DNA of 64,000 bases, taken from the IMG/VR virus record IMGVR_UViG_3300036045_000002, positions 16,086 through 80,085 of that record, one strand, 5' to 3'. Origin of the DNA: a virus. Shown here piece by piece: positions 23,168 to 47,029 of this stretch (positions are counted from its first letter, which is position 1; every line of letters starts with the position of its first letter). The notes beneath the pieces were generated by a model that was not told the origin of the DNA, searched no databases, and worked only from the letters and a program-made list of their open reading frames with translations. The position numbers were made by a program, and so were the translations under genes.

Positions 23168-23365
23168 ATGGAAGACTGCCAGCGATGCGAAGCCCTCAAG
23201 AGCGCAGGCAAGGTCCTGAGGTGCCGGAAGTGCCTGTTCGACCCGTTCTTCGAGGACGCGCCCCGAGCGCCCCGCGACGACATCGCAAACCCCGCGCCAG
23301 ATCGCGTAGCGTCGCGTCTGGCGCGTTTCCGCGACGCAGACGAGACGAGTCACACGTTCGCGTAG
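23168..23365 (+). CDS. Small zinc-finger protein
   Basis: This 65-residue protein has CQRCEALKSAGKVLRCRKC (residues 4-22), two CxxC pairs likely to bind one zinc ion. GGAGAAGG precedes the ATG. The last 30 codons run over an inverted repeat (23293-23325) of the same kind as those in intergenic regions at 29391 and 47006, so the functional protein may have ended earlier in ancestors. Confidence 0.55.
   Translation: MEDCQRCEALKSAGKVLRCRKCLFDPFFEDAPRAPRDDIANPAPDRVASRLARFRDADETSHTFA
23293..23325 (+). promoter_or_regulatory. Inverted repeat CGCGCCAGA...TCTGGCGCG
   Basis: A perfect 9-bp stem upstream of the 29-bp element at 23365. The same GCGCCAGA arm recurs at 29391, 36555 and 47007, ahead of the same element. 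Confidence 0.55.
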
Positions 23366-23393
23366 GTCGTCGATTCTACGCGATTCTAGAGCG
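23365..23393 (+). promoter_or_regulatory. 29-bp conserved upstream element, copy 1
   Basis: A 29-bp sequence beginning GGTCGTCGATTCTACG and ending CGATTCTAGAGCG. Copies of the same length lie at 29462-29490 and 36607-36635, and the last 16 bases recur at 47014-47029. It may be a promoter for a phage or host sigma factor, or an operator. Confidence 0.55.
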
Positions 23394-23460
23394 TTCAGGA
23401 ATGAAACCGGTCGTCCTCTACTACCGTGGCCAGAAACTCACCATCAAAAGGAGTGACCTC

Positions 23461-24417
23461 GTGTCCAGGCGCAAGCAGACCACCCACCAGCAGGCCGTCG
23501 TCAAGACCATCAAGGCCATGTCCGGCGGGACGACCTTCGACAAGGTGCCGAAGGAGATGAAGCGCAACAACCTGCCAGGCCTCAGGTCCGAGGACAGCTT
23601 CTTCGGCGTGGTCAGGTCGTACTTCAAGTACCGCGACTACTCCGACCATACCGACCCGATGCCAGCACCGGAGGACACAAACGTCAGGTACACAGAGCCC
23701 GCACTCGACCAACCGGACGCGAAACCGATCACCCTGGCCCACCGCGAGTACCTGGACGAGAAGGACGACACCATCGTCCGGTGCACTGCGAACAAAATCG
23801 TGTCCAACTATGACGAACTGCCTCAGGACGTCCGCACACGGCTCAGGAACACCAAGGACGCGACGGCGATCAGACCTGAATTCCTAGACGGTGTGGTCGG
23901 GCCGTTATTCTACCGAACAATGGAACTCACCGCCGAGCACCTCTGGTCCGTCCGCCTCAACCCCAGCATCCCGCTGGGTATCGTCCTCGACTGGCTGGAG
24001 ACCAAGGAACTGCACTACGACCTGGAAGGGCACTTCGGGGCGACGGCAATGAGGGGCAAGAACGAGCAGGTAGTAAGGATTCACCTACTCCTGACCGTCC
24101 AGGTCCCGCCAGGAGGCGGCGGGAACGCACACCGGTTCCCGCCGAGGCTCACGGTGCAGGACGAGCAGGAACTCCTCGGCCTGATGAGGCACGTCTACCA
24201 CGAGATTTACAACGACGCGACCGAAATCAGCGAGGACGAAGAGTCCATTAAGTTCATGGTCCCGGACTACCTGGAAACGTACCACACCATCTACAACCAT
24301 CACCGGTATGCCAAACCCCAGGACAGGAAGGAGGCGTTCGACCGGAACCGCGAATTGACCGCGCTGTTCTTCAAACTTCCGCGTGACGTCCAAGACCGAC
24401 TCCTCAGGAGCATCTGA
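23461..24417 (+). CDS. Hypothetical protein
   Basis: This 318-residue protein has no recognised domain. It has a basic N-terminus (RRKQTTHQQAVVKTIKAM) and several charged helices, and ends RDVQDRLLRSI. The GTG at 23461 is chosen for its strong AAAGGAG; an in-frame ATG at 23401 follows the 29-bp element at once but has no spaced ribosome site. The middle region includes a Gly-rich VPPGGGGNAH loop. The stop overlaps the next start (TGATG), so the two are co-translated. Confidence 0.6.
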   Translation: MSRRKQTTHQQAVVKTIKAMSGGTTFDKVPKEMKRNNLPGLRSEDSFFGVVRSYFKYRDYSDHTDPMPAPEDTNVRYTEPALDQPDAKPITLAHREYLDEKDDTIVRCTANKIVSNYDELPQDVRTRLRNTKDATAIRPEFLDGVVGPLFYRTMELTAEHLWSVRLNPSIPLGIVLDWLETKELHYDLEGHFGATAMRGKNEQVVRIHLLLTVQVPPGGGGNAHRFPPRLTVQDEQELLGLMRHVYHEIYNDATEISEDEESIKFMVPDYLETYHTIYNHHRYAKPQDRKEAFDRNRELTALFFKLPRDVQDRLLRSI

Positions 24418-24614
24418 TGACCTGCGTCAACTGCAACCAGACCATTCTGAACCTGAAGACGCTGTACTGGCAACCAGGGATTTGCGGCCACTGGTTCATG
24501 GTCTGTCCGCACTGCCCGTTGACCGTACCGTGCCCGGTCTGCGCCGGAAAGCCTCTGGTGCAACTCGACCAGCCGACCGACGCCGACACCCCCACCATCG
24601 TCCAGGAGACCTGA
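24417..24614 (+). CDS. Small zinc-ribbon protein
   Basis: This 65-residue protein has five cysteines in CVNC, ICGHW, CPHC and CPVC arrangements, enough for one or two zinc sites. It overlaps the previous stop by one base (TGATG). It is one of several small Cys-rich proteins in this stretch; protein or nucleic acid binding is likely, but a partner is unknown. Confidence 0.65.
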   Translation: MTCVNCNQTILNLKTLYWQPGICGHWFMVCPHCPLTVPCPVCAGKPLVQLDQPTDADTPTIVQET

Positions 24615-24616
24615 CC

Positions 24617-24886
24617 GTGTACAACGCGAAAAGACCGGCCGACATCGTCCACTGCCAGCTGTGCGGGAAGGTCGTGGAGACCGGAAACTGGACGGCAGTC
24701 CGATTCCACGAGTGCAAGCACCGGTTCTACTGCTGCTGGCAGTGCGCCGAGTCGCCGGACGGCGTGTGCCCGAAGTGCGTGCCGAAGGGCGAGCTGGACT
24801 CGGACGCGGACACGGTCGCCGAACCGACCCCGTTAGCGAAAGATTCCGCCGGGAACGCCTTGGGAAGCTCCGAGTCTGCCGAGTAG
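24617..24886 (+). CDS. Small Cys/His zinc-binding protein
   Basis: This 89-residue protein starts at GTG 24617 (AGGAGACC upstream). It carries CQLCG, then HECKHRFYCCWQC and CPKC within 50 residues, a RING- or B-box-like spacing of metal ligands. The rest is an acidic, disordered tail. It could be a protein-binding adaptor. A true RING E3 is not implied in a phage of bacteria. Confidence 0.6.
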   Translation: MYNAKRPADIVHCQLCGKVVETGNWTAVRFHECKHRFYCCWQCAESPDGVCPKCVPKGELDSDADTVAEPTPLAKDSAGNALGSSESAE

Positions 24887-24911
24887 CGTCAACGTCGGGC
24901 GCTGTGCGCCC
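24860..24911 (+). promoter_or_regulatory. Weak promoter and leader hairpin before 24940
   Basis: TTGGGA (24860) and TAGCGT (24884) are 18 bp apart and overlap the upstream gene end. GGGCGC-TGT-GCGCCC (24897-24911) follows at the expected +1. The layout matches the stronger units, the sequence match is weak. Confidence 0.4.
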
Positions 24912-24939
24912 CGAGAGTCACACCGACCAGGAGTCCGTG

Positions 24940-25167
24940 ATGCCGAGAACGTCCGCCAGCCGCTACTGCCGCGTCTGCCGTAAGCCGATCCCCAAGGAGC
25001 GGATCGCGGCCCTCCCGCAAACCACGACGTGCGTGTTCTGCTCCGACGAGGAGCCGACGCAAGGGCTGATAGAGTTCGGCCACAAGACCGCGCCGAGCCT
25101 GGTGATCCTCCCGAACGACCCGGAACAGCGACGCCGCGCCCGGAGGAGTTTCCGGCGGGCCCGCTGA
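24940..25167 (+). CDS. DksA/TraR-type zinc finger protein
   Basis: This 75-residue protein carries C10 and C13 in YCRVCRKPIP, then KERIAALPQTTTCVFC with C31 and C34. The CxxC...IPxxRxxALPxTxxCxxC pattern is the hallmark of the DksA/TraR zinc finger, which docks at the secondary channel of RNA polymerase. The usual N-terminal coiled coil is missing; instead there is a C-terminal basic tail (EQRRRARRSFRRAR). It may bind RNA polymerase or nucleic acid. The leader GGAGTCCGTG before the ATG matches other genes of this block. Confidence 0.7.
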   Translation: MPRTSASRYCRVCRKPIPKERIAALPQTTTCVFCSDEEPTQGLIEFGHKTAPSLVILPNDPEQRRRARRSFRRAR

Positions 25168-25186
25168 TTCGCAGCCGAGACCAACC

Positions 25187-25450
25187 GTGCCGAAGACCAG
25201 GAACAACGACGTTGAAGTCCTCGCCACCTGGCTGTGCGGGGCGAGCCTCCAGAAGCCGGACGGGTTCGACACCCTCCGGCAGATCGTCCGCCAGGCCGCG
25301 GTTGACGCGGCCGAGATGTACGCGGACGAAGGCGAACTGAAAGGGGACGAGGACGAGCCGGCCGACCCGCTCGGGGTGCGGGACATCGTCGCGAGGTTCG
25401 CGACGGCCCTGGACGAGGACAAACGGCTCCGGGACGAGGAGGAGGAGTGA
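25187..25450 (+). CDS. Small acidic hypothetical protein
   Basis: This 87-residue acidic, helical protein (TLRQIVRQAAVDAAEMYADEG, ending DEEEE) begins with a GTG at 25187. It ends one base before the AAA+ gene starts, so they are probably co-translated. No family is recognised; it could be a partner or regulator of the ATPase. Confidence 0.55.
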   Translation: MPKTRNNDVEVLATWLCGASLQKPDGFDTLRQIVRQAAVDAAEMYADEGELKGDEDEPADPLGVRDIVARFATALDEDKRLRDEEEE

Positions 25451-26881
25451 GTGGGCTACTTCTCACCGCAAGACGTGGCGAACGTCGCGCTCGACCATCT
25501 CAAGGAGAACAAGTACACCGACGACCAAAGGTACGGGCTGAACACCGGGCAACTCCACCGGGCCGTCGTCAACAAGGACCGGGACAAGTACCAGAACCTC
25601 GACCACGCCGAGTTCCGGGCCATAATGAACCGGCTGCACTCGGCGGGGGTCGTCAAGCGGAGTGGGACCGGGAAGTTCGTCTGGCAGATTAGGAAGGAGG
25701 CCCTCGACTGGAACCGGACGTGGCCGTTCAAGAAGCTACCGACCGCGCCGGGGAACGAGCCTCCGGCCTACACCAACCCGAAGACCCACACCCACGACCA
25801 TCACGGACACCCGAACTTCCAGGAGAATTTCGAGGACGAGAAGCCTCAGTCCCAGCCGCCTCCCGACCTGAGTCACGTCCACGACCTGCTCGGCAAGCTG
25901 GCCCTCAAGCTCGCGGAGCACGAGGCCGTCCTCCAGGGGATCGCGCCCGTCCTGGCGACGATCATGGCCGAGGTTCAGGGGTTGAAGGACAGGAAGGACT
26001 CCCACGTCAAGGTACTCAAGGTCGAACTGCCCAACGGGAAGACGGTCAAGCTCAAGGACGTCGTCCTCCCGCGGGTGTTCGACCGGGTGTTCTCGCTCGC
26101 TAGGTGCCGGCGGAACATCATGCTGTTCGGCCCGGCCGGGTGCGGGAAGACGTACCTGGCGAAACTGGTCGCGGACTCGCTCGGCCTGGACTTCGGGTCG
26201 GTGAGTTGCACGGCCGGGATGTCCGAGTCACACCTGCTCGGCCGCACCGTGCCAGACCTGACGAAGGGGGAGAACGTGTTCCAGGGGGCCGCGTTCCTGG
26301 ACTGCTACGAAAAAGGAGGGGTCTACCTGTTCGACGAACTGGACGCGGCCGACCCGAACCTGCTCCTGTGCGTCAACACGGCCCTGGCGAACGGGTACTG
26401 TAACGTCCCGAACCGGCGGAAGAAGCCGCGGGCCGACCGGCACGAGGACTTCGTGTGCGTCGGCACGGCGAACACCGTCGGGCGGGGGGCGACCCGCATG
26501 TACCAGGGCCGGAACCAGCTGGACGAGGCGACGCTCGACAGGTTCCGGATCGGCATGGTCGAGTGCGACTACGACCCGAGCGTAGAACTGGCCGTGTGTC
26601 CGGACATCGGCGGCGAGGAGGGCCGCGCCTGGAACCCGCCCCTCAGGCAGAACGGCCACGACAACACCGTAGGCAAGCTCGTGTCACTCGGGTACAACCT
26701 CCGGCAGACGTGCCAGTTCGTCCGGCACAAAATCGAGCAGACCGGGATGCGGCGGATCATGAGCACCCGGTTCCTGGAGGACGCCTACGTCATGATGTCG
26801 GCCGGAGGGTGGGACCTGAAGACGGTGTTGGAGGCGTATTTCGAGGGCTGGACACCTGAAGAGAAGGCGAAGGTGACGTGA
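25451..26881 (+). CDS. MoxR-like AAA+ ATPase with N-terminal winged helix
   Basis: This 476-residue protein has an N-terminal winged-helix-like region (residues 1-80, with LHRAVVNKDRDKYQNLDHAEF and a GTGKFVWQI wing), a His/Pro-rich linker, a helix region, and an AAA_5/MoxR ATPase from about residue 195. Walker A is GPAGCGKT (227-234), Walker B VYLFDELDAAD (about 290-300), and sensor 1 VGTANT follows. It then has a helical lid. MoxR ATPases usually act as chaperones with VWA-domain partners, and the gene two positions downstream may be one. Confidence 0.8.
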   Translation: MGYFSPQDVANVALDHLKENKYTDDQRYGLNTGQLHRAVVNKDRDKYQNLDHAEFRAIMNRLHSAGVVKRSGTGKFVWQIRKEALDWNRTWPFKKLPTAPGNEPPAYTNPKTHTHDHHGHPNFQENFEDEKPQSQPPPDLSHVHDLLGKLALKLAEHEAVLQGIAPVLATIMAEVQGLKDRKDSHVKVLKVELPNGKTVKLKDVVLPRVFDRVFSLARCRRNIMLFGPAGCGKTYLAKLVADSLGLDFGSVSCTAGMSESHLLGRTVPDLTKGENVFQGAAFLDCYEKGGVYLFDELDAADPNLLLCVNTALANGYCNVPNRRKKPRADRHEDFVCVGTANTVGRGATRMYQGRNQLDEATLDRFRIGMVECDYDPSVELAVCPDIGGEEGRAWNPPLRQNGHDNTVGKLVSLGYNLRQTCQFVRHKIEQTGMRRIMSTRFLEDAYVMMSAGGWDLKTVLEAYFEGWTPEEKAKVT

Positions 26882-27159
26882 TGCAAGGGCCGATCACCAT
26901 GCACGAGATCAACCTGGACCCGCTTCCGACGCGGGAGGAAGTTCGCGCCTTCGTCAGGTCGCTGACCGACCAGGACCGGGACGACCTGAAGATGCGGGTC
27001 GAGTTCATGACGTACCAGGAGGTCGAGGACTGGCGGGCGAAGGCGGCGCGCGAGAAGGACAGGCCGGCCTACCTGAAGTCGCTGTACGTTTGCACGGCGA
27101 AGATGATGAAGGACGGCGTCGTGGTCGCGGTCATCGGCCTGGTCGAGGGCGACAGGTGA
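26881..27159 (+). CDS. Hypothetical protein between AAA+ and VWA-like genes
   Basis: This 92-residue protein begins at ATG 26881, overlapping the AAA+ stop by one base. It is helical and charged (LPTREEVRAFVRSLTDQDRD). Tight spacing on both sides suggests it works with the ATPase and the downstream protein. No family is recognised. Confidence 0.55.
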   Translation: MQGPITMHEINLDPLPTREEVRAFVRSLTDQDRDDLKMRVEFMTYQEVEDWRAKAAREKDRPAYLKSLYVCTAKMMKDGVVVAVIGLVEGDR

Positions 27160-28055: not shown

Positions 28056-28073
28056 GAAAAGATCGGTCGTCGC

Positions 28074-28102
28074 TTGCTCAGGTCTAACTGCGTCTCTATA
28101 CT
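28074..28102 (+). promoter_or_regulatory. Sigma70-like promoter before the NusG-like gene
   Basis: TTGCTC, a 17-bp spacer and TATACT, followed at once by the leader hairpin at 28106. Confidence 0.7.
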
Positions 28103-28105
28103 GAC

Positions 28106-28134
28106 GTTGTGGGGCGCACGGCGCGCCCCACAAC
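28106..28134 (+). promoter_or_regulatory. 12-bp stem leader hairpin with ACGGC loop
   Basis: GTTGTGGGGCGC (28106-28117), loop ACGGC and the perfect complement (28123-28134). It starts near +1, so the RNA would begin inside or just at the stem. Same loop as at 22834 and 35420. Confidence 0.85.
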
Positions 28135-28160
28135 TCCGTCACCCGAACCGAGAGTCCGTC

Positions 28161-29357
28161 ATGCCCGCGACCGAGACGACCCCCGTCGAGCGCTGCGAGT
28201 CTTGCCTGCAGCCGAACGCGACCTACCTGATGAAGTCGTTCCTGTCCGAGCGCCTCTGCCCGTTCTGCTTCAACCGCAAGAAGAACGGCGGCCCGCAGCC
28301 GCAGGTCGTCTACGTCCCGAGCAGCGAGGCGAACAAGGCCAGGTGCGAGGGGTGCCTGCTCGTCAAGCTCGTCCAGAACATGACGCTAGTGGACGGCCAG
28401 CACGTCTGCGCCGGCTGCGCCAAGGGGCTGTCGAAGAAGTGGTTCGCGGTCGCCGTCTCCGGCAGCGACAACAAGGTCAAGGCGAACATCCGCAAGCGGT
28501 TCCAGGCCCCCCACCTGGTCGGCAAGCTCGGCCGGGTCGTCATCCCGAAGCACAAGCAGGCCCGGACGACGAAGGACAGGTGGGAGGTGTACGCGGACGA
28601 GAGGCTGCTCGGCGTCGTGTCCGCGGCCGACCACGACCAGGCGATGTACGAGGCCCGGCTGAAATTCGAGCGGCCGAGGAAGAAGTCCGTGTACAAGCCC
28701 GAGGACGCGCAGGCCGGGGCCATGAGCGAGGTCAGGAAGGAGAAGCACGGCCGGCGGGTGTACTACGCGGCCTACGACGCCGACGGCAAGATGCTCGGCC
28801 GCGTCACGGGCCACAAGAACCAGGAGGTCGCGACCGTCGCCCTCACCGCGATGTACGGGCCGAAGGAGAAGGTCAACAAGAACCCGCGGGAGTCCGTGAC
28901 CGAGTACCACGTCGTCACCGACGTGAAGCTGGCCGTACACGGGGGGAGGACCGTCGTCCAGAATCAGCGGGCCATGCCCGGGTACCTGCTGGTCGAGTGC
29001 GAGGCCGACGACTGCGTGTTCAAGGAGATCAAGGACGTGTCGGGCGTGTACTCGCTGCTCCCGTTCTGGGAGGACATGAAGTACGACGACCTGGAAGAAG
29101 GCGAAGTCGTCCAGGGGGCCACGTCCCTGTCGAAGGCCGAGGTGGACGGGTGGGTCAAGCGGCCGGAGGACAAGCCCGTGGCGCTGGCCTACGCCGTGGG
29201 CGACGAGGTCACGCTCGGGGACGGGCCGATGAAGGGGACGAAGGTCAAGGTCGTCGCGATCACCGGGCACGTCATGGCCCCCGAGGTCAAGGTCTCGGCC
29301 ACGATCCTGGGCCGGGAGGTCGAGATCAAGGTCAAGCACACCGAGGTCCGCAAGTGA
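28161..29357 (+). CDS. NusG-like transcription factor with zinc-finger N-terminus and large NGN insertion
   Basis: This 398-residue protein is a strong candidate for a phage NusG/RfaH/LoaP-type factor. Residues 12-86 contain four CxxC pairs. KKWFAVAVSGSDNKVKANIRKR (from 92) is the first strand and helix of an NGN domain, with GRVVIPK nearby. After an insertion of about 135 residues (131-265), NQRAMPGYLLVECEADDCVF (268-287) supplies the PGYLL strand, followed by SGVYSLL. A KOW-like end (345-398: AVGDEVTLGDGPMKGTKVKV, then ILGREVEIKV) completes the fold. Such proteins bind RNA polymerase across the clamp and can antiterminate. It lies under a promoter with a special leader hairpin. GAGTCCGTC precedes the ATG. 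Confidence 0.8.
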   Translation: MPATETTPVERCESCLQPNATYLMKSFLSERLCPFCFNRKKNGGPQPQVVYVPSSEANKARCEGCLLVKLVQNMTLVDGQHVCAGCAKGLSKKWFAVAVSGSDNKVKANIRKRFQAPHLVGKLGRVVIPKHKQARTTKDRWEVYADERLLGVVSAADHDQAMYEARLKFERPRKKSVYKPEDAQAGAMSEVRKEKHGRRVYYAAYDADGKMLGRVTGHKNQEVATVALTAMYGPKEKVNKNPRESVTEYHVVTDVKLAVHGGRTVVQNQRAMPGYLLVECEADDCVFKEIKDVSGVYSLLPFWEDMKYDDLEEGEVVQGATSLSKAEVDGWVKRPEDKPVALAYAVGDEVTLGDGPMKGTKVKVVAITGHVMAPEVKVSATILGREVEIKVKHTEVRK

Positions 29358-29390
29358 CGCGGGGCGCTTCGTCGCGCCGTCTGTGACCCA

Positions 29391-29421
29391 GCGCCAGATC
29401 GCACAGAATCGCGTCTGGCGC
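29391..29421 (+). promoter_or_regulatory. Inverted repeat GCGCCAGA...TCTGGCGC
   Basis: An 8-bp stem with 15-base loop in the gap after the NusG-like gene. A second stem (TCGAAAGTG...CACTTTCGA, about 29431-29458) follows before the 29-bp element. Either could act as a weak terminator or regulatory fold. Confidence 0.5.
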
Positions 29422-29461
29422 GAGGTCGTGTCGAAAGTGAAGTGCGTCACACTTTCGATAC

Positions 29462-29490
29462 GGTCGTTGAACTGACGCGACTCTAGAGCG
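29462..29490 (+). promoter_or_regulatory. 29-bp conserved upstream element, copy 2
   Basis: GGTCGTTGAACTGACGCG then ACTCTAGAGCG, the same length as copies at 23365 and 36607. It ends 12 bases before the GTG at 29503, in front of AAAGGG. Confidence 0.6.
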
Positions 29491-29502
29491 AAAGGGACTG
29501 CC

Positions 29503-30250: not shown

Positions 30251-30278
30251 TTGACGCGCGGGGGGCGTCCAGTATGAT
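30251..30278 (+). promoter_or_regulatory. Sigma70-like promoter before the sigma-like gene
   Basis: TTGACG, a 16-bp spacer and TATGAT, about 45 bases before the GTG at 30322. No leader hairpin is seen here. Confidence 0.75.
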
Positions 30279-30321: not shown

Positions 30322-30897
30322 GTGACCAGGCGACAGCACACCCCCGCCGACCAGACGTTCGAGGAGACGAGGAACTTCGTCCACAAACTCCTGAACTCGT
30401 TCGCCCGGGCGTACCCGTACCTCGACCGGGACGACCTCACGTCGGCCGCCTACTACGGGTGGACGCAGGCGTACCAGACCTTCCGGCACGAACTCGGGTA
30501 CGCCTTCCTGACGTGGGTCGGGGAGAAGGTGGACAAGAGGCTCAAGGACGTGCTCCGGCGGACCCTCCACGAGAGACGGAAGAACGCCCGGACCGTGAGG
30601 ATCGAGACCGGGGAGGACTGGACGGGCGGTCACGACGGGAACACGGTCAACGTACCTGACCGGGAGCCGACGCCGCAGTTCCCCCGGGTCGAGTGGTTCG
30701 ACTCCCTGTCCCCCGACGCCCAGGTCGTCGCGACACTGGCCCTGGACAGCCCGATCGACGTCCGGCTCATCCTGTCCCAGTTCGGGGTCGAGGACGGCGG
30801 GGCCTGGCGGCAGGCCATCCGGGAGCACCTGGGCGAGGCCGGGTGGGGTGCCCGCCGGCTGAAAAGAACGTTCCTGGAAATAAGAGGTGCGTTGTGA
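30322..30897 (+). CDS. Sigma-factor-like protein, region 2
   Basis: This 191-residue protein has the signature of sigma70 region 2 at about residues 15-78. FVHKLLNSFARAYPYLDRDDL followed by AAYYGWTQAYQTF and GYAFLTWVGEKVDKRLKDVLR corresponds to regions 2.1-2.4, where the DDLxxxxxxG and FLTW(V) pattern melts and reads the -10 element. The C-terminal half has a short helix-turn-helix-like stretch but no clear region 4. It could direct transcription from unusual phage promoters, or be an anti-sigma-like competitor. GTG start with CAGGAG upstream; the reading from 30274 is rejected. Confidence 0.7.
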   Translation: MTRRQHTPADQTFEETRNFVHKLLNSFARAYPYLDRDDLTSAAYYGWTQAYQTFRHELGYAFLTWVGEKVDKRLKDVLRRTLHERRKNARTVRIETGEDWTGGHDGNTVNVPDREPTPQFPRVEWFDSLSPDAQVVATLALDSPIDVRLILSQFGVEDGGAWRQAIREHLGEAGWGARRLKRTFLEIRGAL

Positions 30898-31186: not shown

Positions 31187-31891
31187 ATGTCCAAGTTCAC
31201 GCCCAGGCTGGAGGCGCTCGACGGCAGGCAGGTCCCCGGGTCGCTGATCGTCAACGCCCTGACGGCCGGCCTGGAGAACCTGTTCGTGTACGTCGGCGAC
31301 GGGCCGAAGCTGATGCTCCCGGGAGGCGTCGATCCGGCCATGCTGAACCAGCAACCGGCCGGGGCCGCCCCCGCGCCGGTGACCCCGCTGCCGCTGGCGA
31401 CCTGGAACGTCAACGTGACGCCGGCCGCCCTCAACAGCGACGGCATCGGGACCTCGGACATCGCCTCGACGGCCGGGGTCGCCGACTCCGGGCTCTGGAA
31501 CGTCCAGGTGACGTTCACCATCTACCAGTGTACGGCCAACCAGCCGGGGGCCATCACCTACAGCCCGACGACCGGCCTCCCGACGAACGGGACGTTCGAG
31601 TACACGGTCAACATCAACGGCGTGGCCGGTCCCACCGGTATCGACGTGAACTCCCTCGCGACCGACTTCGCCGCGGGCCTGACCACGGCCGGGTTCCCGT
31701 CGGGGGCCAGCGGGGCGATCGTCCACGTCAACGGCCCGTCGGCCGTGCCGGTGGTGATCGACGGCGTGACGCACACGGCCCACGGGATCGTGAAGTCCGT
31801 GTCCATCGTGTGCGTCAAGGCCACGGACTTCAACGGCAACAACCTGCCGGGCCTGGGTAACTACGCCCCGACCGTCCAGCAATCGCCGTGA
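31187..31891 (+). CDS. Secreted-type beta protein with planctomycete N-terminal motif
   Basis: This 234-residue protein begins MSKFTPRLEALDGRQVPGS, strongly recalling the RLExLEDRxVP motif found at the start of many exported Gemmata-group proteins. A Pro/Ala linker (residues 55-70) and a beta-rich C-terminal domain (about 70-230, Ser/Thr/Gly/Asn-rich) follow. It may be a late-acquired host gene or a virion protein using a host sorting signal. It stands alone between a coupled regulator pair and nucleotide genes, with AAGGAG before the ATG. Confidence 0.65.
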   Translation: MSKFTPRLEALDGRQVPGSLIVNALTAGLENLFVYVGDGPKLMLPGGVDPAMLNQQPAGAAPAPVTPLPLATWNVNVTPAALNSDGIGTSDIASTAGVADSGLWNVQVTFTIYQCTANQPGAITYSPTTGLPTNGTFEYTVNINGVAGPTGIDVNSLATDFAAGLTTAGFPSGASGAIVHVNGPSAVPVVIDGVTHTAHGIVKSVSIVCVKATDFNGNNLPGLGNYAPTVQQSP

Positions 31892-35403: not shown

Positions 35404-35412
35404 GACGCGATG

Positions 35413-35431
35413 TCGTCGCACGGCGCGACGA
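35413..35431 (+). promoter_or_regulatory. Leader hairpin with ACGGC loop
   Basis: TCGTCGC-ACGGC-GCGACGA, perfect 7-bp stem at +3 or so. It matches the leader hairpins at 22826 and 28106. Confidence 0.75.
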
Positions 35432-35455
35432 CGCACACACACGAGAGATCGCGAC

Positions 35456-36499: not shown

Positions 36500-36561
36500 C
36501 TCGCATTCGCGGCGCTCGACGCGCCCCACACCTGTCTTCCTTTCGCACAGAATTGCGCCAG

Positions 36562-36616
36562 ATCGACGACCGCCGTCAGAGACGAGACTTTTCTCAGACT
36601 GAGTACGGTCGTCGAT
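36562..36616 (+). promoter_or_regulatory. Inverted repeat ATCGACGACCG...CGGTCGTCGAT
   Basis: A perfect 11-bp stem whose right arm is the first part of the 29-bp element at 36607. The stem would hide that element in RNA. Confidence 0.6.
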
Positions 36617-36635
36617 TGTACGCGATTCTAGAGCG
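36607..36635 (+). promoter_or_regulatory. 29-bp conserved upstream element, copy 3
   Basis: GGTCGTCGATTGTACG then CGATTCTAGAGCG. It differs from copy 1 at one base. The next gene starts 164 bases on at 36799, and nothing else recognisable lies between except GAAACGGACC and the Arg/Cys-coding-like spacer. Confidence 0.6.
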
Positions 36636-36798
36636 AAACGGACCTGCGTCCGACAAAACTTCCGGCGATAATCACGTCCGGCGCGCGTGGGATAGGCGGG
36701 GGTCATGTCCCGCCGACAAGCGACTTTCACCAGGGTCGCTTCCCACGCACCTTTTTCCTTCCTGCCTCTGGTGACCACCGCGCCGGTGGAGTTTTACC

Positions 36799-38076
36799 AT
36801 GCCTGACGCTCGCTCGTCCGATCAATCCGTTCCGTCCTCCACCTCGATCCTCGACGCCTTCAACTGGCGTGGAGTCTGGACGCCTGGAGAGGTCATCGCC
36901 CTCCTCATCGACGGCGTCCTCAATCCTACCGAGGTCATGCTCCTCAGCCTGATCGAGTCGGCCGTCAAAGTCCGGGGGGAAGGGTGCTGGATCAGCAACA
37001 ACACGTTCGCGAAGGCACTCGGCCTCGCCAACAAGGCGAACGTGAACCGGATGATCCGGAAACTGAAGAAGCTCGACCTCGTCTACGAAGTCGGCTACGT
37101 CATGAAGAACAACTTGCGGCTGCGGGTCCTCCGAACCCGCCTGCCGGAGTGTCGAGAAATCGGTAAGGGGGACAGCTTTAAAGCTCACCCCCGGACAGCT
37201 TTAAAGCTGGCCGACTCTTCACTACGTTCAGAGATTAAAAAATACGTGGCTCCCTCCGGAGAGCCACGGATCGGGGAGAAACCTGCCTTGTCTGGTCAAT
37301 TCATACCTGAACTGGAAAACACCGGTAAAGGTAAGGGGCCATCGGAAAAGTGGGACAACTGGTGTGCCATGAGGTTGCGCGACTGCGCCGCGAACGCGAC
37401 CAAGATTTCGAGGAAATACGTCCTTTCGGCCGAAGGGAAGCACTTCCGGATGTTGCGCAAGGACCTCGGTGACGACCGAAACCGGATCGAGCGCGTCCTC
37501 GACTTCTATTGCGTCCAGATAGGACGGCCTTTCGTCCCCGACGTCCAGAACGCGAAAACGTTCCGGAGGAAGTGGACCCAACTCGAAGCCGCGTACCAAA
37601 GGTACCTCAAGAACAACCCCGACGTCCAGATTACCGACGAAGCGCACTCCGTTGTCAAGCACTACCTGTTCGGCCTGAACTGGCCGAAGGGAAGCGCGAC
37701 CAAACTTCTGCCGGCCGTCCAGGTGATGCTGGACAGGTATCGTGACTTCCGGGCCAAGCTCCGGGCCTACAAGGAGACCCGCCCCGAGTGGATCAAGGTC
37801 GGCAAGAACACCGTCCAAAACGCCCCCAAGCACCACGCCCTCGCCCACTTCCTGAGCAAGGCGCTGTCGTCTGTTGACTTCTTCGTCGGTCGCTGGTTCG
37901 CCGACCTGTACCAGCGGGTCGTTAACTGGCCGAAGTGGCACGGCAACCTGATGTCGGACGTGTGGAACGGCGACCCCAAGGACCAGAAGTTCGGCAAGGC
38001 TGTTTTGTCCCACTGCCAGACTTGGGGCGACCGGGTGTCCGAGGCGTGGGGCGTCCTGTCCCAGGAGTTGTCATGA
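36799..38076 (+). CDS. Replication initiator-like protein with winged helix
   Basis: This 425-residue protein is probably the origin-binding or helicase-loading protein. Residues about 50-110 form a winged helix (NPTEVMLLSLIESAVKVRGE, GCWISNNTFAKALGLANKAN, then LDLVYEVGYV). The remainder is helical and basic. Its gene ends with an ATGA overlap with the DnaB-like helicase, the O-P or initiator-helicase order of many phages. Codons 124-137 contain two identical iterons and then an AT-rich stretch, as in lambda O. There is no clear ribosome site before ATG 36799. Confidence 0.7.
   Translation: MPDARSSDQSVPSSTSILDAFNWRGVWTPGEVIALLIDGVLNPTEVMLLSLIESAVKVRGEGCWISNNTFAKALGLANKANVNRMIRKLKKLDLVYEVGYVMKNNLRLRVLRTRLPECREIGKGDSFKAHPRTALKLADSSLRSEIKKYVAPSGEPRIGEKPALSGQFIPELENTGKGKGPSEKWDNWCAMRLRDCAANATKISRKYVLSAEGKHFRMLRKDLGDDRNRIERVLDFYCVQIGRPFVPDVQNAKTFRRKWTQLEAAYQRYLKNNPDVQITDEAHSVVKHYLFGLNWPKGSATKLLPAVQVMLDRYRDFRAKLRAYKETRPEWIKVGKNTVQNAPKHHALAHFLSKALSSVDFFVGRWFADLYQRVVNWPKWHGNLMSDVWNGDPKDQKFGKAVLSHCQTWGDRVSEAWGVLSQELS
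37170..37208 (+). repeat. Two 16-bp origin iterons inside the initiator gene
   Basis: GGACAGCTTTAAAGCT at 37170-37185 and 37193-37208, each containing the palindrome AGCTTTAAAGCT, 23 bp apart. An AT-rich stretch (GATTAAAAAATACG, about 37232) and an 8-bp hairpin CGTGGCTC/GAGCCACG (about 37245-37268) follow. The arrangement suits a replication origin. Confidence 0.7.
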
Positions 38077-39521: not shown

Positions 39522-39551
39522 TTGAACAGGACGTCGCGGATCGCGTAGTCT
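39522..39551 (+). promoter_or_regulatory. Sigma70-like promoter
   Basis: TTGAAC, an 18-bp spacer and TAGTCT. It shares TTGAACAGGACG with the promoter at 35374. Confidence 0.6.
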
Positions 39552-39554
39552 GAC

Positions 39555-39589
39555 GCTGCGATCTCTCGCACGTCGCGAGACGACGCAGC
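39555..39589 (+). promoter_or_regulatory. Two-tier leader hairpin
   Basis: GCTGCG...CGCAGC encloses TCTCGC-ACGTC-GCGAGA. It lies just after the promoter at 39522, like the ACGGC-loop leaders, with loop ACGTC. Confidence 0.65.
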
Positions 39590-39949: not shown

Positions 39950-39961
39950 CCGTGTTCACCC

Positions 39962-39977: not shown

Positions 39978-39999
39978 TCTTTCCCCACAGGAGTCCGAC

Positions 40000-40179: not shown

Positions 40180-40207
40180 ACCATACCTACTTACCAAGGA
40201 GTCCGTC

Positions 40208-40435: not shown

Positions 40436-40437
40436 CC

Positions 40438-41637: not shown

Positions 41638-41697
41638 AAATACGCGCGGCCAACCAAAGTTCGGCCGCGAGTCTGAGAGCGAGAAGTCGAGTTGCGG

Positions 41698-41714
41698 GGC
41701 CCGACGTTCGGGCC
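41698..41714 (+). promoter_or_regulatory. Hairpin before 41750
   Basis: GGCCCGA-CGT-TCGGGCC, perfect 7-bp stem about 35 bases before the ATG. A second hairpin (CGCGGCC...GGCCGCG, 41645-41669) precedes it. No clear promoter is seen. Confidence 0.5.
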
Positions 41715-41749
41715 TGCGATCCCAAGCGCCGTAGGTCGAGGAGACCGTC

Positions 41750-42667: not shown

Positions 42668-42679
42668 CCGAGGCCGACC

Positions 42680-42708
42680 AGGAGGGGGCTTGACGGTCCC
42701 CTCCTTTC
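42680..42708 (+). terminator. Terminator-like hairpin before queD
   Basis: An 8-bp perfect stem (AGGAGGGG with CCCCTCCT) followed by TTCCC. It may separate the histone-like gene from the queD operon. Confidence 0.6.
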
Positions 42709-42722
42709 CCAAGGAGTCTTCC

Positions 42723-43178
42723 ATGCACGCGATCACGGTCACAATCCCGTTCTGCGCCGGCCATCGGGTCCTCGGGCACCAAGGCAAGTGCCAGTACCTG
42801 CACGGCCACAACTACCGGGCGGTCGTAACCTTCGAGTCGGACGGACTCGACCATATGGGGTTCGTGGCCGACTTCGGCGTGGTCAAGGACCGACTCAAGA
42901 CGTGGATCGACTCGGCCTGGGACCACAACTTCATCGCCCACCCCCACGACCCGCTCGTCCAATTGTGGGGGCAAGTAGATGTGGTCGGGGGCCTCTTTGG
43001 CAACCCGGGCCACGCCAGGAAGCCTTACGTCATGAGGTGCCACGGAAACCCGACCGCCGAGAACATGGCGAAGGAATTGGCGACCTTTGCGGCCGAGGTC
43101 GCCAAGGAGAACGAGTGCGACCTGGCTGAGGTCGTGATTTACGAAACCGACACGTCGATGGGTCGGTATGTGCCGTAG
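42723..43178 (+). CDS. queD: QueD, 6-carboxy-tetrahydropterin synthase
   Basis: This 151-residue T-fold enzyme makes 6-carboxytetrahydropterin from dihydroneopterin triphosphate, the second step towards 7-deazaguanines. Zinc ligands appear in FCAGHRV and YLHGHNYRAVV, and the catalytic Cys is in GKCQYLHGHNY. FVADFGVVK and NPTAENMAKELA are further family motifs. It is followed by queE and folE. The ATG at 42723 has AAGGAGTCTTCC upstream. Confidence 0.92.
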   Translation: MHAITVTIPFCAGHRVLGHQGKCQYLHGHNYRAVVTFESDGLDHMGFVADFGVVKDRLKTWIDSAWDHNFIAHPHDPLVQLWGQVDVVGGLFGNPGHARKPYVMRCHGNPTAENMAKELATFAAEVAKENECDLAEVVIYETDTSMGRYVP

Positions 43179-43227
43179 CCGATTGGCCCGCCCGCAAACC
43201 TCAACCGAGACCTAACGGAGACCTCCG

Positions 43228-43476
43228 GTGCCGCACGTCGCTAACCCCCCGGCCTACCTGGCCCGCTCGTCCGTCAGCAAGTACGTCCACGAAGGCCGGG
43301 TCGCCAGGTTCGTCGGCGACGGCGCTCCTCTCCCGCCCAGGCCGGCGACCTGCTTCTCACTGGAGCAGGCCCTGACCAACATGAACTGGTCGCTCTCGTC
43401 CATCGACGAAGGCGTCCGGCGAGGCGTCCTGGAGTTCTTCCGCAAGGCCGGCAAGGCCTTCATCCGCATCCTGTGA
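43228..43476 (+). CDS. Small hypothetical protein in the que cluster
   Basis: This 82-residue protein (SSVSKYVHEGRVARFVGDGA, ending RKAGKAFIRIL) starts at GTG 43228 with CGGAG upstream. Its stop overlaps the queE start as GTGA. No family is recognised; coupling suggests a role or regulation linked to the deazaguanine pathway. Confidence 0.55.
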   Translation: MPHVANPPAYLARSSVSKYVHEGRVARFVGDGAPLPPRPATCFSLEQALTNMNWSLSSIDEGVRRGVLEFFRKAGKAFIRIL

Positions 43477-44225
43477 GGCCGACAGTGAGTGACTCACCGA
43501 TTAAATCGAAACTGGTCGAGCCGGGCCGTCAGAACCTCCAGACGGTCGAGAAGCAAGACCTCGACCCGGGCCGCCCATACGAGGTCTTCAAAGTCTGGAA
43601 GACGATCCAGGGCGAAGGCCCGTTCGCCGGCCGGCCGGCCGTGTTCGTCAGGCTGGCCGGGTGTAACCTCCAGTGCCCGGCGTGTGACACGGACTACACG
43701 TCCCGCCGGGACTTGATGTCCACCCACACGCTGTTCGCGGAGGTCGTCAAACTGGCCACCCGCGGCCTGGTCGTCTTCACCGGGGGCGAGCCTTTCCGCC
43801 AGCGACTCGGGCCGATCGTCCGGGAGTTGATTCACACGGGGGACTACTCCGTGCAGATCGAGACCAACGGCACCCTGTGGGACGAGGACATGCCGTGGTT
43901 CGGCGACCTGACCGTCGTGTGCTCGCCGAAGACGCCGAAGATCCACCCGCTCACGGAGGAGCGGGTCAACTACTACAAGTACGTGGTCGAAGACGGTCAC
44001 ATCGACCCGGTGGACGGCCTGCCGACCCGCGTCCTGGGGGCCCCGTGCGCGGCCCACAAGCCGAGGCCGCACTTCCCCCGGCACAAGGTGTACATCCAGC
44101 CGATGGACAACGGGCCGTGGCTGGGAGGCATGACCGGGAACAACGTCCACGCCGCGGCCGAGGTGTGCATGCGGCACGGGTACACGCTGAGCCTCCAAAT
44201 CCACAAGATACTCGGACTCGAATAG
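43473..44225 (+). CDS. queE: QueE, 7-carboxy-7-deazaguanine synthase
   Basis: This 250-residue radical SAM enzyme rearranges carboxytetrahydropterin to 7-carboxy-7-deazaguanine (CDG). KTIQGEGPFAGRPAVFVRLA is the typical start, then GCNLQCPACDTDYT with the CxxxCxxC iron-sulphur site, VFTGGEPF for SAM contact, and IETNGT. GTG at 43473 overlaps the previous stop; GTG at 43485 is an alternative. Confidence 0.92.
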   Translation: MRPTVSDSPIKSKLVEPGRQNLQTVEKQDLDPGRPYEVFKVWKTIQGEGPFAGRPAVFVRLAGCNLQCPACDTDYTSRRDLMSTHTLFAEVVKLATRGLVVFTGGEPFRQRLGPIVRELIHTGDYSVQIETNGTLWDEDMPWFGDLTVVCSPKTPKIHPLTEERVNYYKYVVEDGHIDPVDGLPTRVLGAPCAAHKPRPHFPRHKVYIQPMDNGPWLGGMTGNNVHAAAEVCMRHGYTLSLQIHKILGLE

Positions 44226-44259
44226 CCTGCGCCCGCGACAGGCGAGACTGAAAACGCTG

Positions 44260-44300
44260 GCGACCCGGGCCTCCGGCGGTCGAGGCCCGGGTCGCTTTTT
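44260..44300 (+). terminator. Strong intrinsic terminator after queE
   Basis: A perfect 14-bp stem (44260-44273 with 44282-44295, GCGACCCGGGCCTC and its complement), 8-base loop and five Ts. Confidence 0.92.
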
Positions 44301-44328
44301 CCTAGACCGACAGCCGGAGTTTTCCGCC

Positions 44329-44907
44329 ATGCTGGTGACACGCCCGCCTCGACCGACCCACCACGAGGCCGTCCAGGCCGTCAAGACGCTCCTCCGGTAC
44401 GTCGGCGAGGACCCCGACCGGGAAGGACTGCTGGACACACCGGAGCGGGTGCTCCGGGCGTACTCCGAACTCCTGGCCGGGTACGACCGGCAGGCCGGGT
44501 TCCAACTCAAGACGTTCGCCGACGGCGTGTGCGACGAAATGGTCGTGGTCAAAGGGATCGAGTTCACCAGCTTCTGCGAACACCATTGGCTGCCGTTCTC
44601 CGGCGTCGCCCACGTCGGGTACCTGCCGGACACACGGATCGTGGGCCTGTCGAAGATCCCGCGACTCGTGGACGTGTTCGCCAAGCGGCTCCAGGTGCAG
44701 GAGAGGATGACCCAGCAGGTTGTGGACGCCTTGCAGGAGTACCTGGCCCCCAAGGGGTGCGGGTGCGTGGTCGTCGCGTCCCACTCGTGCATGTCGTGCC
44801 GGGGCGTCAGGAAGCAGAACGCCACCATGACCACGTCCGCCTTGCGGGGGGCGTTTAAAGCGGACGCTTCGACCCGGGCCGAATTCCTGTCCATCGTGAG
44901 AGGGTGA
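44329..44907 (+). CDS. folE: FolE, GTP cyclohydrolase I
   Basis: This 192-residue enzyme makes dihydroneopterin triphosphate from GTP, the entry step for the que pathway. Family marks are DTPERVLRAYSELLAGY, EFTSFCEHHWLPFSGVAHVG (zinc Cys and His pair), LVDVFAKRLQVQERM and SCMSCRGVRKQNATMTT (second zinc Cys). It stands behind a terminator, so it may start a new unit, although no clear promoter is seen. The ATG at 44329 has CGGAG about nine bases upstream. Confidence 0.95.
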   Translation: MLVTRPPRPTHHEAVQAVKTLLRYVGEDPDREGLLDTPERVLRAYSELLAGYDRQAGFQLKTFADGVCDEMVVVKGIEFTSFCEHHWLPFSGVAHVGYLPDTRIVGLSKIPRLVDVFAKRLQVQERMTQQVVDALQEYLAPKGCGCVVVASHSCMSCRGVRKQNATMTTSALRGAFKADASTRAEFLSIVRG

Positions 44908-44910
44908 GTC

Positions 44911-45252
44911 GTGCCTAACCGAAAGGCCGTCAAGAACCGGTACGCCGGAAGAAAATCAACGGCCGGCCCGACCAGGCCGAACACCTGGAGGTACGGTCGG
45001 GTGGAGCCTACGGCCAAGGCCGGCCTGTACCTGCTGAAACTCCGGAGCAGGGTAGACGTTTGCCAGGTCGTCTACCTGCCTCGGGAGGACAACCCGGACG
45101 CGACGTACCTGGCCGTGGTCTGCCGGGGCCTGACGCGGGAGTTCAAACACTGGTCGGACCTGCACGACCTGGTGCGGGACGAGGTCGTGATGTACTACGG
45201 CCCCGTCCAACCGTACAACGACAACACCAACCCGAACCTCCCAGGAGGGTGA
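44911..45252 (+). CDS. Hypothetical protein in deazaguanine cluster
   Basis: This 113-residue protein starts at GTG 44911, three bases after folE. It is basic at the N-terminus (RKAVKNRYAGRKS) and has strand-rich sequence (AGLYLLKLRSRVDVCQVVYL). It ends one base before the next gene. No family is recognised. Confidence 0.55.
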   Translation: MPNRKAVKNRYAGRKSTAGPTRPNTWRYGRVEPTAKAGLYLLKLRSRVDVCQVVYLPREDNPDATYLAVVCRGLTREFKHWSDLHDLVRDEVVMYYGPVQPYNDNTNPNLPGG

Positions 45253-45253
45253 C

Positions 45254-45643
45254 GTGCTCAGCTTCAACACCGCGGTGTGGGTCAAGGCGCGGTTCACCGC
45301 GTTGCACCGGTGGAAGGACGCCCCCGACGAGGCCGCCTTCCTGCGGGACTACCACCGGCACGAGTTCCACGTGGAACTCGGCGTCAAAGTCAACCACGAC
45401 GACCGGGACGTGGAATTCTTGAAACTCAAGAACGACCTGCAGTGCCTGCTCCTGGCCGTCTACCACAACGAGACCTTCGACCACTCCTGCGAGCAGGTCG
45501 CCTCGCAGATCCTGACCAGGTACCACGACGCCGGGTGGGACGTGGCCTACTGCAAGGTGAGCGAGGACGGCGAGAACGGGGCGACCGTCTACGCCGTCAA
45601 GCCCCTCCAAGTCGTCGTCCCCTTCCGGCCGGAGGAGAACTGA
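45254..45643 (+). CDS. T-fold protein, divergent QueD/PTPS relative
   Basis: This 129-residue protein has FTALHRWKDAPDE, then YHRHEFHVELGVKVN, EFLKLKNDL and SCEQVASQIL, the order of QueD/pterin synthase motifs (AxHR, HRHEF in place of HGHNY, DF/EF helix, xxENxA). The catalytic Cys before the HxH motif is missing. It may bind a pterin or deazaguanine, or serve as a structural subunit. GTG start with GGAGGGTGAC; its stop overlaps the glycosyltransferase start (TGATG). Confidence 0.55.
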   Translation: MLSFNTAVWVKARFTALHRWKDAPDEAAFLRDYHRHEFHVELGVKVNHDDRDVEFLKLKNDLQCLLLAVYHNETFDHSCEQVASQILTRYHDAGWDVAYCKVSEDGENGATVYAVKPLQVVVPFRPEEN

Positions 45644-46911
45644 TGCTCTACTACCTGCCACTCGAACCGTACAAGGAACGGTACACGATGCAACTCTCGG
45701 CGGCCGAGACCGGCTGGTTCGAGAGGAACTGGTTGGCGGCCAACGTCAACTACAAACGGATCCAGCCTCCGTTCTCGACGCCTACGACCCCGCCAAGGTC
45801 GATCAAGACCGGGCGGGTGCTGGACGCGGTGGGGAGGTCGCGGTGGGCGATGGGGCAGATCGACCAACTCCTGTCGCTGGCCGACCGGGACTACATCTCC
45901 AGCACCGACGTGATCTACCTGGACGACTTCTGGCACCCCGGCGTCCAGGCCCTCCCGTACCTGTTCCAGCAGAAGGGCATCAAGCCCCGGATGTACGCCT
46001 TCTGCTGGGCGCAGTCCGTTGACCAGTACGACTTCACCTACGCGATGCGGGACTGGATTCGGCACTTCGAGCGCGGCACGGCCGCGCTCCTGGACGGGGT
46101 GTTCGTCGCGTCCACGGAACTCAAGACCCTGCTCGCCCGGGAGTGGGTTGCGCACGAAGGCAAGGTCGAGGTCGTCGGCCTGCCGTTCGACTCGGGTGAG
46201 GTCAAATCGAGAATGCCTGAGGACTACCAGGTGTACACGGACCGGGACCGGCTGTCCAAGCTGATCGACGTGTCCGGTTACCCGACCGAAATGCCCCGAA
46301 AGAACCAGGTCGTGTTCTCGTCCAGGTGGGACCGGGAGAAGGACCCGCAGTTCTTCTGCCGGGTGGCGGAAATCGTCCTCCGGGAGACCCAGGACGTCAA
46401 GTTCGTCGTCTGCTCCTCGGCCGACGTGATCCGGTCTAACTACCCCGGCCTGGTGAACAGCCTGGACGACATGGCGATCCGGCACCCGCACAACTTCCAG
46501 GTCGCGACCGGGCTGACGAAGGAGGCCTACTACCGGATTCTGACCGAGTCCAAGGTCCAGTTCAACTGCGCCGACCAGGACTGGGTGTCGTTCACCCTCC
46601 TGGAGGCCGTCACGGCCGGCTGCTACCCGCTGTACCCGTACTTCCGGAGTTTTCCCGAGACGTTCGACCGGGACATGCGGTTCATGTACCCGAAGGACAA
46701 CGAGCAGGAGGCCGCGAAGAAGCTCCTGGCCGTCCTCCGGACGCCGGACGACCTCTGGGCCGCCGACCAGATCGCCGAAAGGCAGCAGATCGTCCGGCGG
46801 CACGACATGACCTGGATGCGAATTCTTGACAGGATGCAAGTCCACTTCGACTGTGACCCGGAGACCCGCAAGAAGGTGCGAAAGGAAGCGTACGCGCCGG
46901 GCGCTGTCTAG
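45643..46911 (+). CDS. Glycosyltransferase, GT-B type (GT4-like)
   Basis: This 422-residue protein reads as a GT-B glycosyltransferase. The N-terminal half has STDVIYLDDFWHPGVQALPY and later VFVASTELKTLL and VEVVGLPFDSG, typical of the donor-domain entry. Residues about 225-310 (NQVVFSSRWDREKDPQFFCR) and VSFTLLEAVTAGCYPLYPYF (the E-x7-E-like GT4 motif with Glu and Gly) complete the fold. In this cluster it may add sugar to a modified base, but capsid or host targets are also possible. It starts one base into the previous stop. Confidence 0.7.
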   Translation: MLYYLPLEPYKERYTMQLSAAETGWFERNWLAANVNYKRIQPPFSTPTTPPRSIKTGRVLDAVGRSRWAMGQIDQLLSLADRDYISSTDVIYLDDFWHPGVQALPYLFQQKGIKPRMYAFCWAQSVDQYDFTYAMRDWIRHFERGTAALLDGVFVASTELKTLLAREWVAHEGKVEVVGLPFDSGEVKSRMPEDYQVYTDRDRLSKLIDVSGYPTEMPRKNQVVFSSRWDREKDPQFFCRVAEIVLRETQDVKFVVCSSADVIRSNYPGLVNSLDDMAIRHPHNFQVATGLTKEAYYRILTESKVQFNCADQDWVSFTLLEAVTAGCYPLYPYFRSFPETFDRDMRFMYPKDNEQEAAKKLLAVLRTPDDLWAADQIAERQQIVRRHDMTWMRILDRMQVHFDCDPETRKKVRKEAYAPGAV

Positions 46912-46937
46912 CGAAAACTCGCAGACCCCGCGCCATT

Positions 46938-47029
46938 CGCTCTAGAATCGCGTCTGGCGCGTTTTCAACTCGAAAGTGACTCTCTTCTCAGTTTCGTCGG
47001 GACCTCGCGCCAGACGCGATTCTAGAGCG
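46938..47029. repeat. 24-bp perfect inverted repeat around the TCTAGAGCG element
   Basis: The left arm 46938-46961 is the exact complement of 47006-47029, with a 44-base spacer that contains CTCGAAAGTGACTC. The right arm ends in the same 16-base core (ACGCGATTCTAGAGCG, 47014-47029) that closes the 29-bp element elsewhere. It precedes AAAGGGACTGCC and the GTG at 47042. Confidence 0.8.

What the first reader, a model, noticed from the sequence alone, without database searches (positions are those of the whole stretch)
23365..47029. A 29-bp element ending TCTAGAGCG repeated before separate transcription units
Copies at 23365-23393, 29462-29490 and 36607-36635 have the same length and nearly the same bases; the last 16 bases recur at 47014-47029. 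All follow a GCGCCAGA arm and most precede GAAAGGGAC-type ribosome sites. No normal -35/-10 fits, so a special sigma (perhaps the 30322 protein) or a dimeric repressor is possible.
Basis: partly seen in the sequence, partly recalled or inferred. Interest (0 to 1): 0.7.

Follow-up and report, generated by a model that had tools for sequence, protein, structure and literature searches.

The report
Repeated long RNA hairpins before genes
A phage genome carries a private set of roughly 100-base imperfect mirror-image repeats, four of them just before genes, that would fold into long RNA hairpins reaching the ribosome-binding region, so they more likely control how the phage's messages are cut or translated than act as unusual promoters.

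Summary
The repeat is real, but it was cut too short. In the 80,085-base virus record that holds the window, the core CGCGATTCTAGAGCG (up to 1 mismatch) occurs six times, against 0.006 expected. The 29-bp 'element' is the 3' arm of a ~100-bp imperfect inverted repeat; 5' arms start 75-76 bp upstream in all four copies, and in copy d the arms are a perfect 25-bp inverted repeat. Copies b, c and d fold as long RNA hairpins (z -3.3, -6.3, -9.4), with inner stems that differ in sequence yet pair, and the hairpin base reaches the following GG-rich ribosome-site sequence. Copy d shares only the last 16 bases, so there is no common -35, and ordinary sigma-70-like promoters lie elsewhere: the special-sigma reading is weak. 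A related phage (G011) has its own unrelated family of seven intercistronic hairpins with strong covariation, so this lineage does use repeated intercistronic RNA structures. Best reading: a post-transcriptional element (mRNA processing and/or start-site masking), inferred, not shown. Two extra copies do not fit neatly: one bipartite copy inside a coding gene and one solitary arm antisense to late genes. A sequence-read DNA site (ESAS-like) therefore stays a serious rival.

The parts
23293..23400 (+). Copy a: composite inverted-repeat element before gene 23401; 5' arm from 23302, 3' arm from 23377
   Evidence: Arm spacing 75; fold z -2.5 as two local hairpins, long hairpin 4 kcal/mol less stable
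29390..29502 (+). Copy b: element before gene 29503; 5' arm from 29399, 3' arm from 29474, then GAAAGGGACTGCCGTG
   Evidence: Arm spacing 75; long hairpin z -3.3; inner stem z -3.0
36540..36648 (+). Copy c: element ~150 nt before the replication-initiator-like gene 36799; 5' arm from 36543, 3' arm from 36619
   Evidence: Arm spacing 76; long hairpin z -6.3; inner stem z -4.6
46924..47041 (+). Copy d: element before radical-SAM (QueE-like) gene 47042; perfect 25-bp inverted repeat 46937-46961 / 47006-47030
   Evidence: long hairpin z -9.4; inner stem z -3.2
46938..46952 (-). Minus-strand copy of the core = 5' arm of copy d
14596..14615 (+). Copy e: solitary 3' arm (GACGCGATTGTAGAGCGAAA) in a gap between minus-strand late genes, so antisense to them; no partner arm, no stable fold
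   Evidence: 1 mismatch of 20 to copy d; PWM score 25.7 against a null maximum of 20.6; fold z +2.4 on the transcribed strand
30322..30897 (+).
28161..29357 (+). Protein with a NusG domain (candidate antitermination factor, role in this element not shown)
   Evidence: Pfam NusG 9e-7; phrog_6386 transcription antiterminator 5e-7

Best explanation
A private family of composite intercistronic elements. Each of copies a-d is a ~100-base imperfect inverted repeat lying along the coding strand; in the mRNA it can fold into a long hairpin whose conserved 3' arm runs into the ribosome-binding region of the next gene (a, b, d). Most likely it acts after transcription: in the long transcript the hairpin insulates or partly masks the next gene's start and is cut by a double-strand-specific nuclease (host RNase III type), or opened by a factor reading the conserved 3' arm, so that genes of one transcript are controlled separately. 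Shown here: the copies, arms, fixed spacing, predicted folds and non-random inner pairing. Inferred: that the RNA forms in the cell, that it is cut or regulates translation, and by which factor.
For: Arms at fixed spacing in a-d. Long-hairpin folds of b, c, d with z -3.3, -6.3, -9.4, and inner stems of different sequence that still pair better than shuffles (z -3.0, -4.6, -3.2). CC upstream can pair with the GG of the ribosome-site sequence in the four-copy alignment. a, b and d abut start codons on the sense strand. No T run after the stems, and no terminator call at a-c. The related phage G011 has seven intercistronic hairpins before genes with strong covariation (98.4% of cells paired, 20 double-change cells, 0/500 shuffles as high). 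[quoted passage not shown] start-masking hairpins of T4 genes e, soc, 49 and I-TevI (PMC3014915).
Against: Copy f (record 2851-2947) has both arms at spacing 75 but lies inside a coding gene and does not fold stably. Copy e is a solitary arm antisense to late genes. In a the inner region does not fold better than chance. The 3' arm is nearly invariant while the 5' arm varies, which points to reading of sequence and not only pairing. The RNAalifold covariation term for a-d is zero. c is ~150 nt from its gene. No phage-encoded RNase III was found, so the host enzyme has to be assumed. The G011 family is an analogy, not homologous.
Confidence: 0.45

Rival explanations
1. A bipartite binding site on DNA: two inverted half-sites about seven helical turns apart, bound by a phage protein as an operator or looping site, as was proposed for the ESAS repeats of Cluster K mycobacteriophages.
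For: Arm spacing is fixed at 75-76 bp in a-d and again in f, which lies in a coding gene with unrelated inner sequence (joint score 32.9 against a null maximum of 19.5, Gumbel p ~1e-5). e is a solitary site on the strand opposite to the surrounding genes. The 3' arm is the most conserved part. ESAS authors favoured DNA-binding proteins (PMC3203893).
Against: It does not explain inner stems of different sequence in b, c and d that pair better than shuffles, nor the hairpin base reaching the ribosome-site sequence. No sigma-70-like promoter is seen at the copies for a repressor to act on. Equal spacing may simply reflect common descent of a-d.
Confidence: 0.27
2. An RNA (or non-template DNA) signal that loads the phage's own NusG-family protein on RNA polymerase for antitermination, LoaP-like, repeated every 6-10 kb along the rightward genes.
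For: The phage encodes a NusG-domain protein directly upstream of copy b. A strong terminator-like hairpin with TTTTT lies inside the co-directional cluster at 44260-44300. LoaP, a NusG paralogue, needs a leader RNA hairpin (PMC12691694).
Against: G011 has a hairpin family but no NusG match, and G007 has NusG but no repeated intergenic family at k=12. The LoaP hairpin is small with a UNCG loop; these are long and have no common loop. Four copies in one cluster are more than such systems usually need.
Confidence: 0.11
3. Promoters for a special sigma factor (the 30322 protein); possibly with start-masking by the hairpin in longer transcripts, as at T4 late promoters of gene e.
For: Sigma70_r2 protein present and kept in relatives. 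b and d are identical from the 3' arm to the start codon apart from one base. T4 precedent of a promoter within a start-masking hairpin (PMC3014915).
Against: No second conserved box upstream of the last 16 bases in d, e and f. The motif is absent from relatives that keep the sigma gene. e is antisense to late genes and f is within a gene. Sigma-70-like promoters serve other places in the cluster.
Confidence: 0.1
4. A small mobile repeat (MITE- or REP-like) that spread in this genome and has no function.
For: Inverted-repeat ends, several copies in one genome, none found in relatives or collections.
Against: No target duplications apparent by eye; sequences just outside the arms are shared between copies. 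f aligns without a gap to the G007 homologue of its gene, so it is not an insertion. Inner stems stay paired with different sequences.
Confidence: 0.04

Closest known systems
SAS / ESAS repeats of Cluster K mycobacteriophages (PMC3203893)
   Same: Imperfect inverted repeats just upstream of start codons of a subset of non-structural genes, next to a repeated start-associated sequence, mostly in one orientation with an occasional reverse copy, and private to a phage group.
   Different: ESAS arms are 17 bp with a spacer of 4-13 bp in most sites; here arms start 75-76 bp apart with paired inner stems. ESAS copies gave little support for RNA pairing; three of the four copies here do. The SAS sequence GGGATAGGAGCCC is not present at the copies.
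RNase III processing sites of bacteriophage T7 early RNA (PMC4858673)
   Same: Irregular hairpins between co-directional genes on the sense strand, several related copies per genome, upstream of gene starts.
   Different: Cleavage not tested. T7 R1.1 is a 60-nt RNA; these hairpins are ~100 nt. Here one arm is nearly invariant in sequence.
Start-masking hairpins of T4 genes e, soc, 49 and I-TevI (PMC3014915)
   Same: Helix that reaches the ribosome-binding region of the downstream gene.
   Different: T4 examples are single-gene structures with a late promoter inside; here a repeated family and no recognisable promoter. Masking here rests on only 2-3 weak pairs at the hairpin base.
LoaP / dfn hairpin antitermination (PMC12691694)
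   Same: A NusG-family protein in the genome and RNA hairpins in a long gene cluster that contains terminator-like structures.
   Different: Hairpin size and loop unlike dfn; binding untested; NusG and hairpin families do not co-occur in the relatives examined.

Membership tests
ESAS/SAS-type start-associated repeats | Repeat immediately upstream of start codons of several genes | tested here: met
   a, b, d within ~15 nt of start codons; c ~150 nt away; e and f not at starts
ESAS/SAS-type start-associated repeats | 17-bp imperfect inverted repeats with short (4-13 bp) spacer | tested here: not met
   Arm starts 75-76 bp apart, longer paired inner region
ESAS/SAS-type start-associated repeats | 13-bp SAS GGGATAGGAGCCC | tested here: not met
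   Downstream of the arms the sequence is GAAAGGGACTGCC or similar
RNase III processing site | Long, irregular, sense-strand double-stranded RNA between genes | tested here: met
   Predicted folds of b, c, d; a is ambiguous
RNase III processing site | Cleavage by RNase III in the hairpin | not testable with these tools
   Needs RNA-end mapping or in-vitro cleavage
Alternative-sigma promoter family | Two conserved boxes at fixed spacing upstream of transcript starts | tested here: not met
   Only one conserved block is shared by a-d; the upstream 13 bases of d agree with a-c at 2-4 of 13. Transcript starts not testable
Intrinsic terminator | GC-rich stem directly followed by a T run | tested here: not met
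   Stems run into GAAAGGGAC-type sequence; no terminator call at a-c (the scan ended before d)
Known Rfam RNA family | Match to a curated covariance model | tested here: not met
   No match at E <= 1 in the window
LoaP-type antitermination | NusG-family protein encoded with the RNA signal | tested here: met
   NusG domain in 28161 protein
LoaP-type antitermination | Small UNCG-loop hairpin bound by the protein | tested here: inconclusive
   No shared loop among a-d by inspection of the folds; binding not testable

The most novel reading that the evidence does not exclude
The conserved arm is read in trans as well as in cis: the same bipartite signal is used between genes, inside a coding gene (f) and as a single antisense arm in the late region (e), so that late messages carrying the complementary arm, or one phage factor that reads the arm, switch off or process the messages that carry the element.
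Probability: 0.07. Interest if true: 0.75.

Novelty: new variant of a known kind. Interest (0 to 1): 0.42.

Why it matters
Two related phages (this one and G011) each carry a private family of intercistronic hairpins with no sequence in common, one of them with clear RNA covariation. If these process or time messages, it would be a case of post-transcriptional control whose layout is kept while the sequence is replaced. It would also offer a direct test of whether ESAS-like repeats in other phages work as RNA or as DNA, a question left open since 2011.

Tried and rejected
Exact 15-mer in IMG/VR: 15 hits, all in unrelated contexts on inspection. Longer or gapped patterns in IMG/VR and GTDB: none. 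Protein-based search for close relatives of the rep gene: none; of DNA polymerase and TerL: only relatives of ~53% identity or less. Rfam: none. No similar phage DNA record. Profile search of four relatives: no copy. Codon rarity as a sign of dual coding at f: the stretch is low (rank fraction 0.005), but a neighbouring stretch of the same gene is lower still, so it is not decisive. The direct-repeat tool mostly returned acidic-repeat coding DNA. Integron attC: only a general resemblance in layout, no GTTRRRY core seen by eye, not pursued. No structure prediction was run: the sigma-like fold would not decide between the explanations. Paper searches for T7 RNase III with narrow terms returned nothing.

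Full report
What is there. The window is bases 16086-80085 of an 80,085-base virus record from IMG/VR. The core CGCGATTCTAGAGCG (up to one mismatch) occurs six times in the record, where a dinucleotide model expects 0.006. One of these is on the minus strand at 46938-46952; it is the other arm of copy d, which is a perfect 25-bp inverted repeat (46937-46961 / 47006-47030). The other three full copies also have a 5' arm: TCGCGTAGCGTCGCG (a), TCGCACAGAATCGCG (b), TCGCACAGAATTGCG (c). Arm starts lie 75, 75, 76 and 76 bases apart. The 29-bp unit is therefore half of a larger element, and its first 13 bases are shared only by a-c.

Folding. As RNA, b, c and d fold into one long irregular hairpin (z = -3.3, -6.3, -9.4). 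Copy a prefers two local hairpins (z = -2.5), with the long hairpin 4 kcal/mol less stable. The inner regions, outside the conserved arms, fold better than shuffles in b, c and d (z = -3.0, -4.6, -3.2) but not in a. These inner stems have different sequences, for example GATCGACGACCG/CGGTCGTCGATT in c and GTCTGGCGCG/CGCGCCAGAC in d. In the four-copy alignment the base of the hairpin can reach the GG of the following ribosome-site sequence through an upstream CC (one U-G pair). The covariation term of that alignment is zero, so the support comes from independent inner stems, not from column statistics.

Where they are. a, b and d lie directly before start codons in short gaps between rightward genes: 23401 (unknown), 29503 (unknown, shared with relatives) and 47042 (radical SAM, QueE-like). 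c lies before the replication-initiator-like gene 36799 but ~150 bases upstream, with another structured stretch between. No T run follows the stems, so they are not intrinsic terminators. Sigma-70-like promoters are found at other places in the same gene cluster: 30251-30278 by the scan; 22789-22817, 28074-28102 and 39522-39551 read by eye and located.

Two further copies. A bipartite weight-matrix scan finds a fifth two-armed copy, f, at record 2851-2947, before the window. Its arms score about equally and their spacing is exactly 75; the joint score is 32.9, against a maximum of 19.5 in 60 null runs of 160 kb (Gumbel p about 1e-5). It lies inside an SbcC-like coding gene, does not fold stably and is not an insertion relative to the G007 homologue. 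Copy e (14596-14615) is a solitary 3' arm with one mismatch in 20, in a gap between minus-strand genes. These two argue that the sequence itself is read by something, and they are the main reason why confidence in a purely structural role is limited.

Relatives. Four IMG/VR records share a syntenic set of genes at roughly 25-53% identity: G007, G011 and the pair G003/G004. None holds the motif. G011 has a family of its own: seven hairpins with conserved flanks (GACGATCCCCATTACC ... GGACCTGGTGACCGTT) around a variable stem, each directly before a gene in its first 9 kb. Here the RNA evidence is strong: 98.4% of cells paired, 10 of 18 pairs with double-sided changes, 20 such cells, 0 of 500 shuffles as high on percentage paired or covariation score, and slid controls at 30-41% paired. 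So at least one other member of this group uses repeated, private, intercistronic RNA hairpins. That is the best outside support for an RNA role in the window, but it is an analogy, not homology.

Interpretation. The best-supported reading is post-transcriptional: a hairpin that insulates or partly masks the next gene's start and is processed or opened, as RNase III does for T7 early RNA (PMC4858673) or as start-masking hairpins do in T4 (PMC3014915). Processing, masking and the factor are inferred. A DNA-level bipartite site, as proposed for ESAS (PMC3203893), is the main rival and explains f and e better. A NusG-paralogue antitermination signal (28161 protein; LoaP precedent PMC12691694) is possible, but NusG and hairpin families do not co-occur in the relatives. 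The sigma-promoter idea has a plausible protein (30322) but no promoter-like second box.

Membership. The element is not filed as ESAS (spacing and SAS sequence tested, not met), nor as an Rfam family (no match), nor as an intrinsic terminator. It resembles RNase III sites in structure, but cleavage was not testable. It is best called a new variant of a known kind: start-associated inverted repeats that probably act as RNA.

Noticed in passing
L058 (G011) 2456-2515, 2895-2954, 3489-3544, 4728-4787, 5435-5497, 5840-5895, 8459-8520: A related phage carries seven copies of its own intercistronic RNA hairpin, each directly before a gene, with strong covariation and a conserved 3x3 internal loop.
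   Followed up: yes
37150-37290: Inside the replication-initiator-like gene: two direct copies of GGACAGCTTTAAAGCT (37170, 37193), low GC (0.53) and an A-rich stretch; looks like a lambda-type origin inside the gene.
   Followed up: partly
22827-22845, 28111-28129, 35412-35432, 39564-39580: Four short GC-rich hairpins with loop ACGGC or ACGTC, each about 10 bases after a -10-like box; a second repeated leader structure.
   Followed up: partly
18050-18620: Non-coding stretch rich in long inverted repeats (arms of 16-26 bases, 50-72 apart), including a ~90-nt hairpin at 18507-18592 and three TCTAGA sites; no Rfam match of note.
   Followed up: partly
36685-36756: Structured stretch (stem GCGTGGG/CCCACGC with two inner hairpins, then CACCTTTTT) between copy c and gene 36799; possible small RNA or attenuator.
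   Followed up: no
44260-44300: Strong terminator-like hairpin with TTTTT inside the co-directional gene cluster and no evident promoter after it, which would call for read-through.
   Followed up: no
23382, 29479, 36624, 47018 and record 2932: Every full 3' arm contains a GANTC site (copy b's change GATTC to GACTC keeps it), and the phage encodes an adenine methyltransferase of the CcrM/YhdJ/RsrI kind at 56939-57679; its specificity is unknown and GANTC is not enriched genome-wide.
   Followed up: partly
L069 2677-2947: The SbcC-like gene has unusually many rare codons around and upstream of copy f.
   Followed up: partly
42723-48845: Cluster with 6-pyruvoyl-tetrahydropterin-synthase-like, radical SAM, GTP-cyclohydrolase-like and queuine tRNA-ribosyltransferase-like proteins, suggesting 7-deazaguanine DNA modification (FolE and QueD calls partly from sequence inspection).
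   Followed up: no
31187-31891: Protein begins MSKFTPRLEALDGRQVPG, which resembles the LE-x-L-x-x-R-x-x-P start of planctomycete exported proteins; the host may be a planctomycete (from memory, no family match).
   Followed up: no
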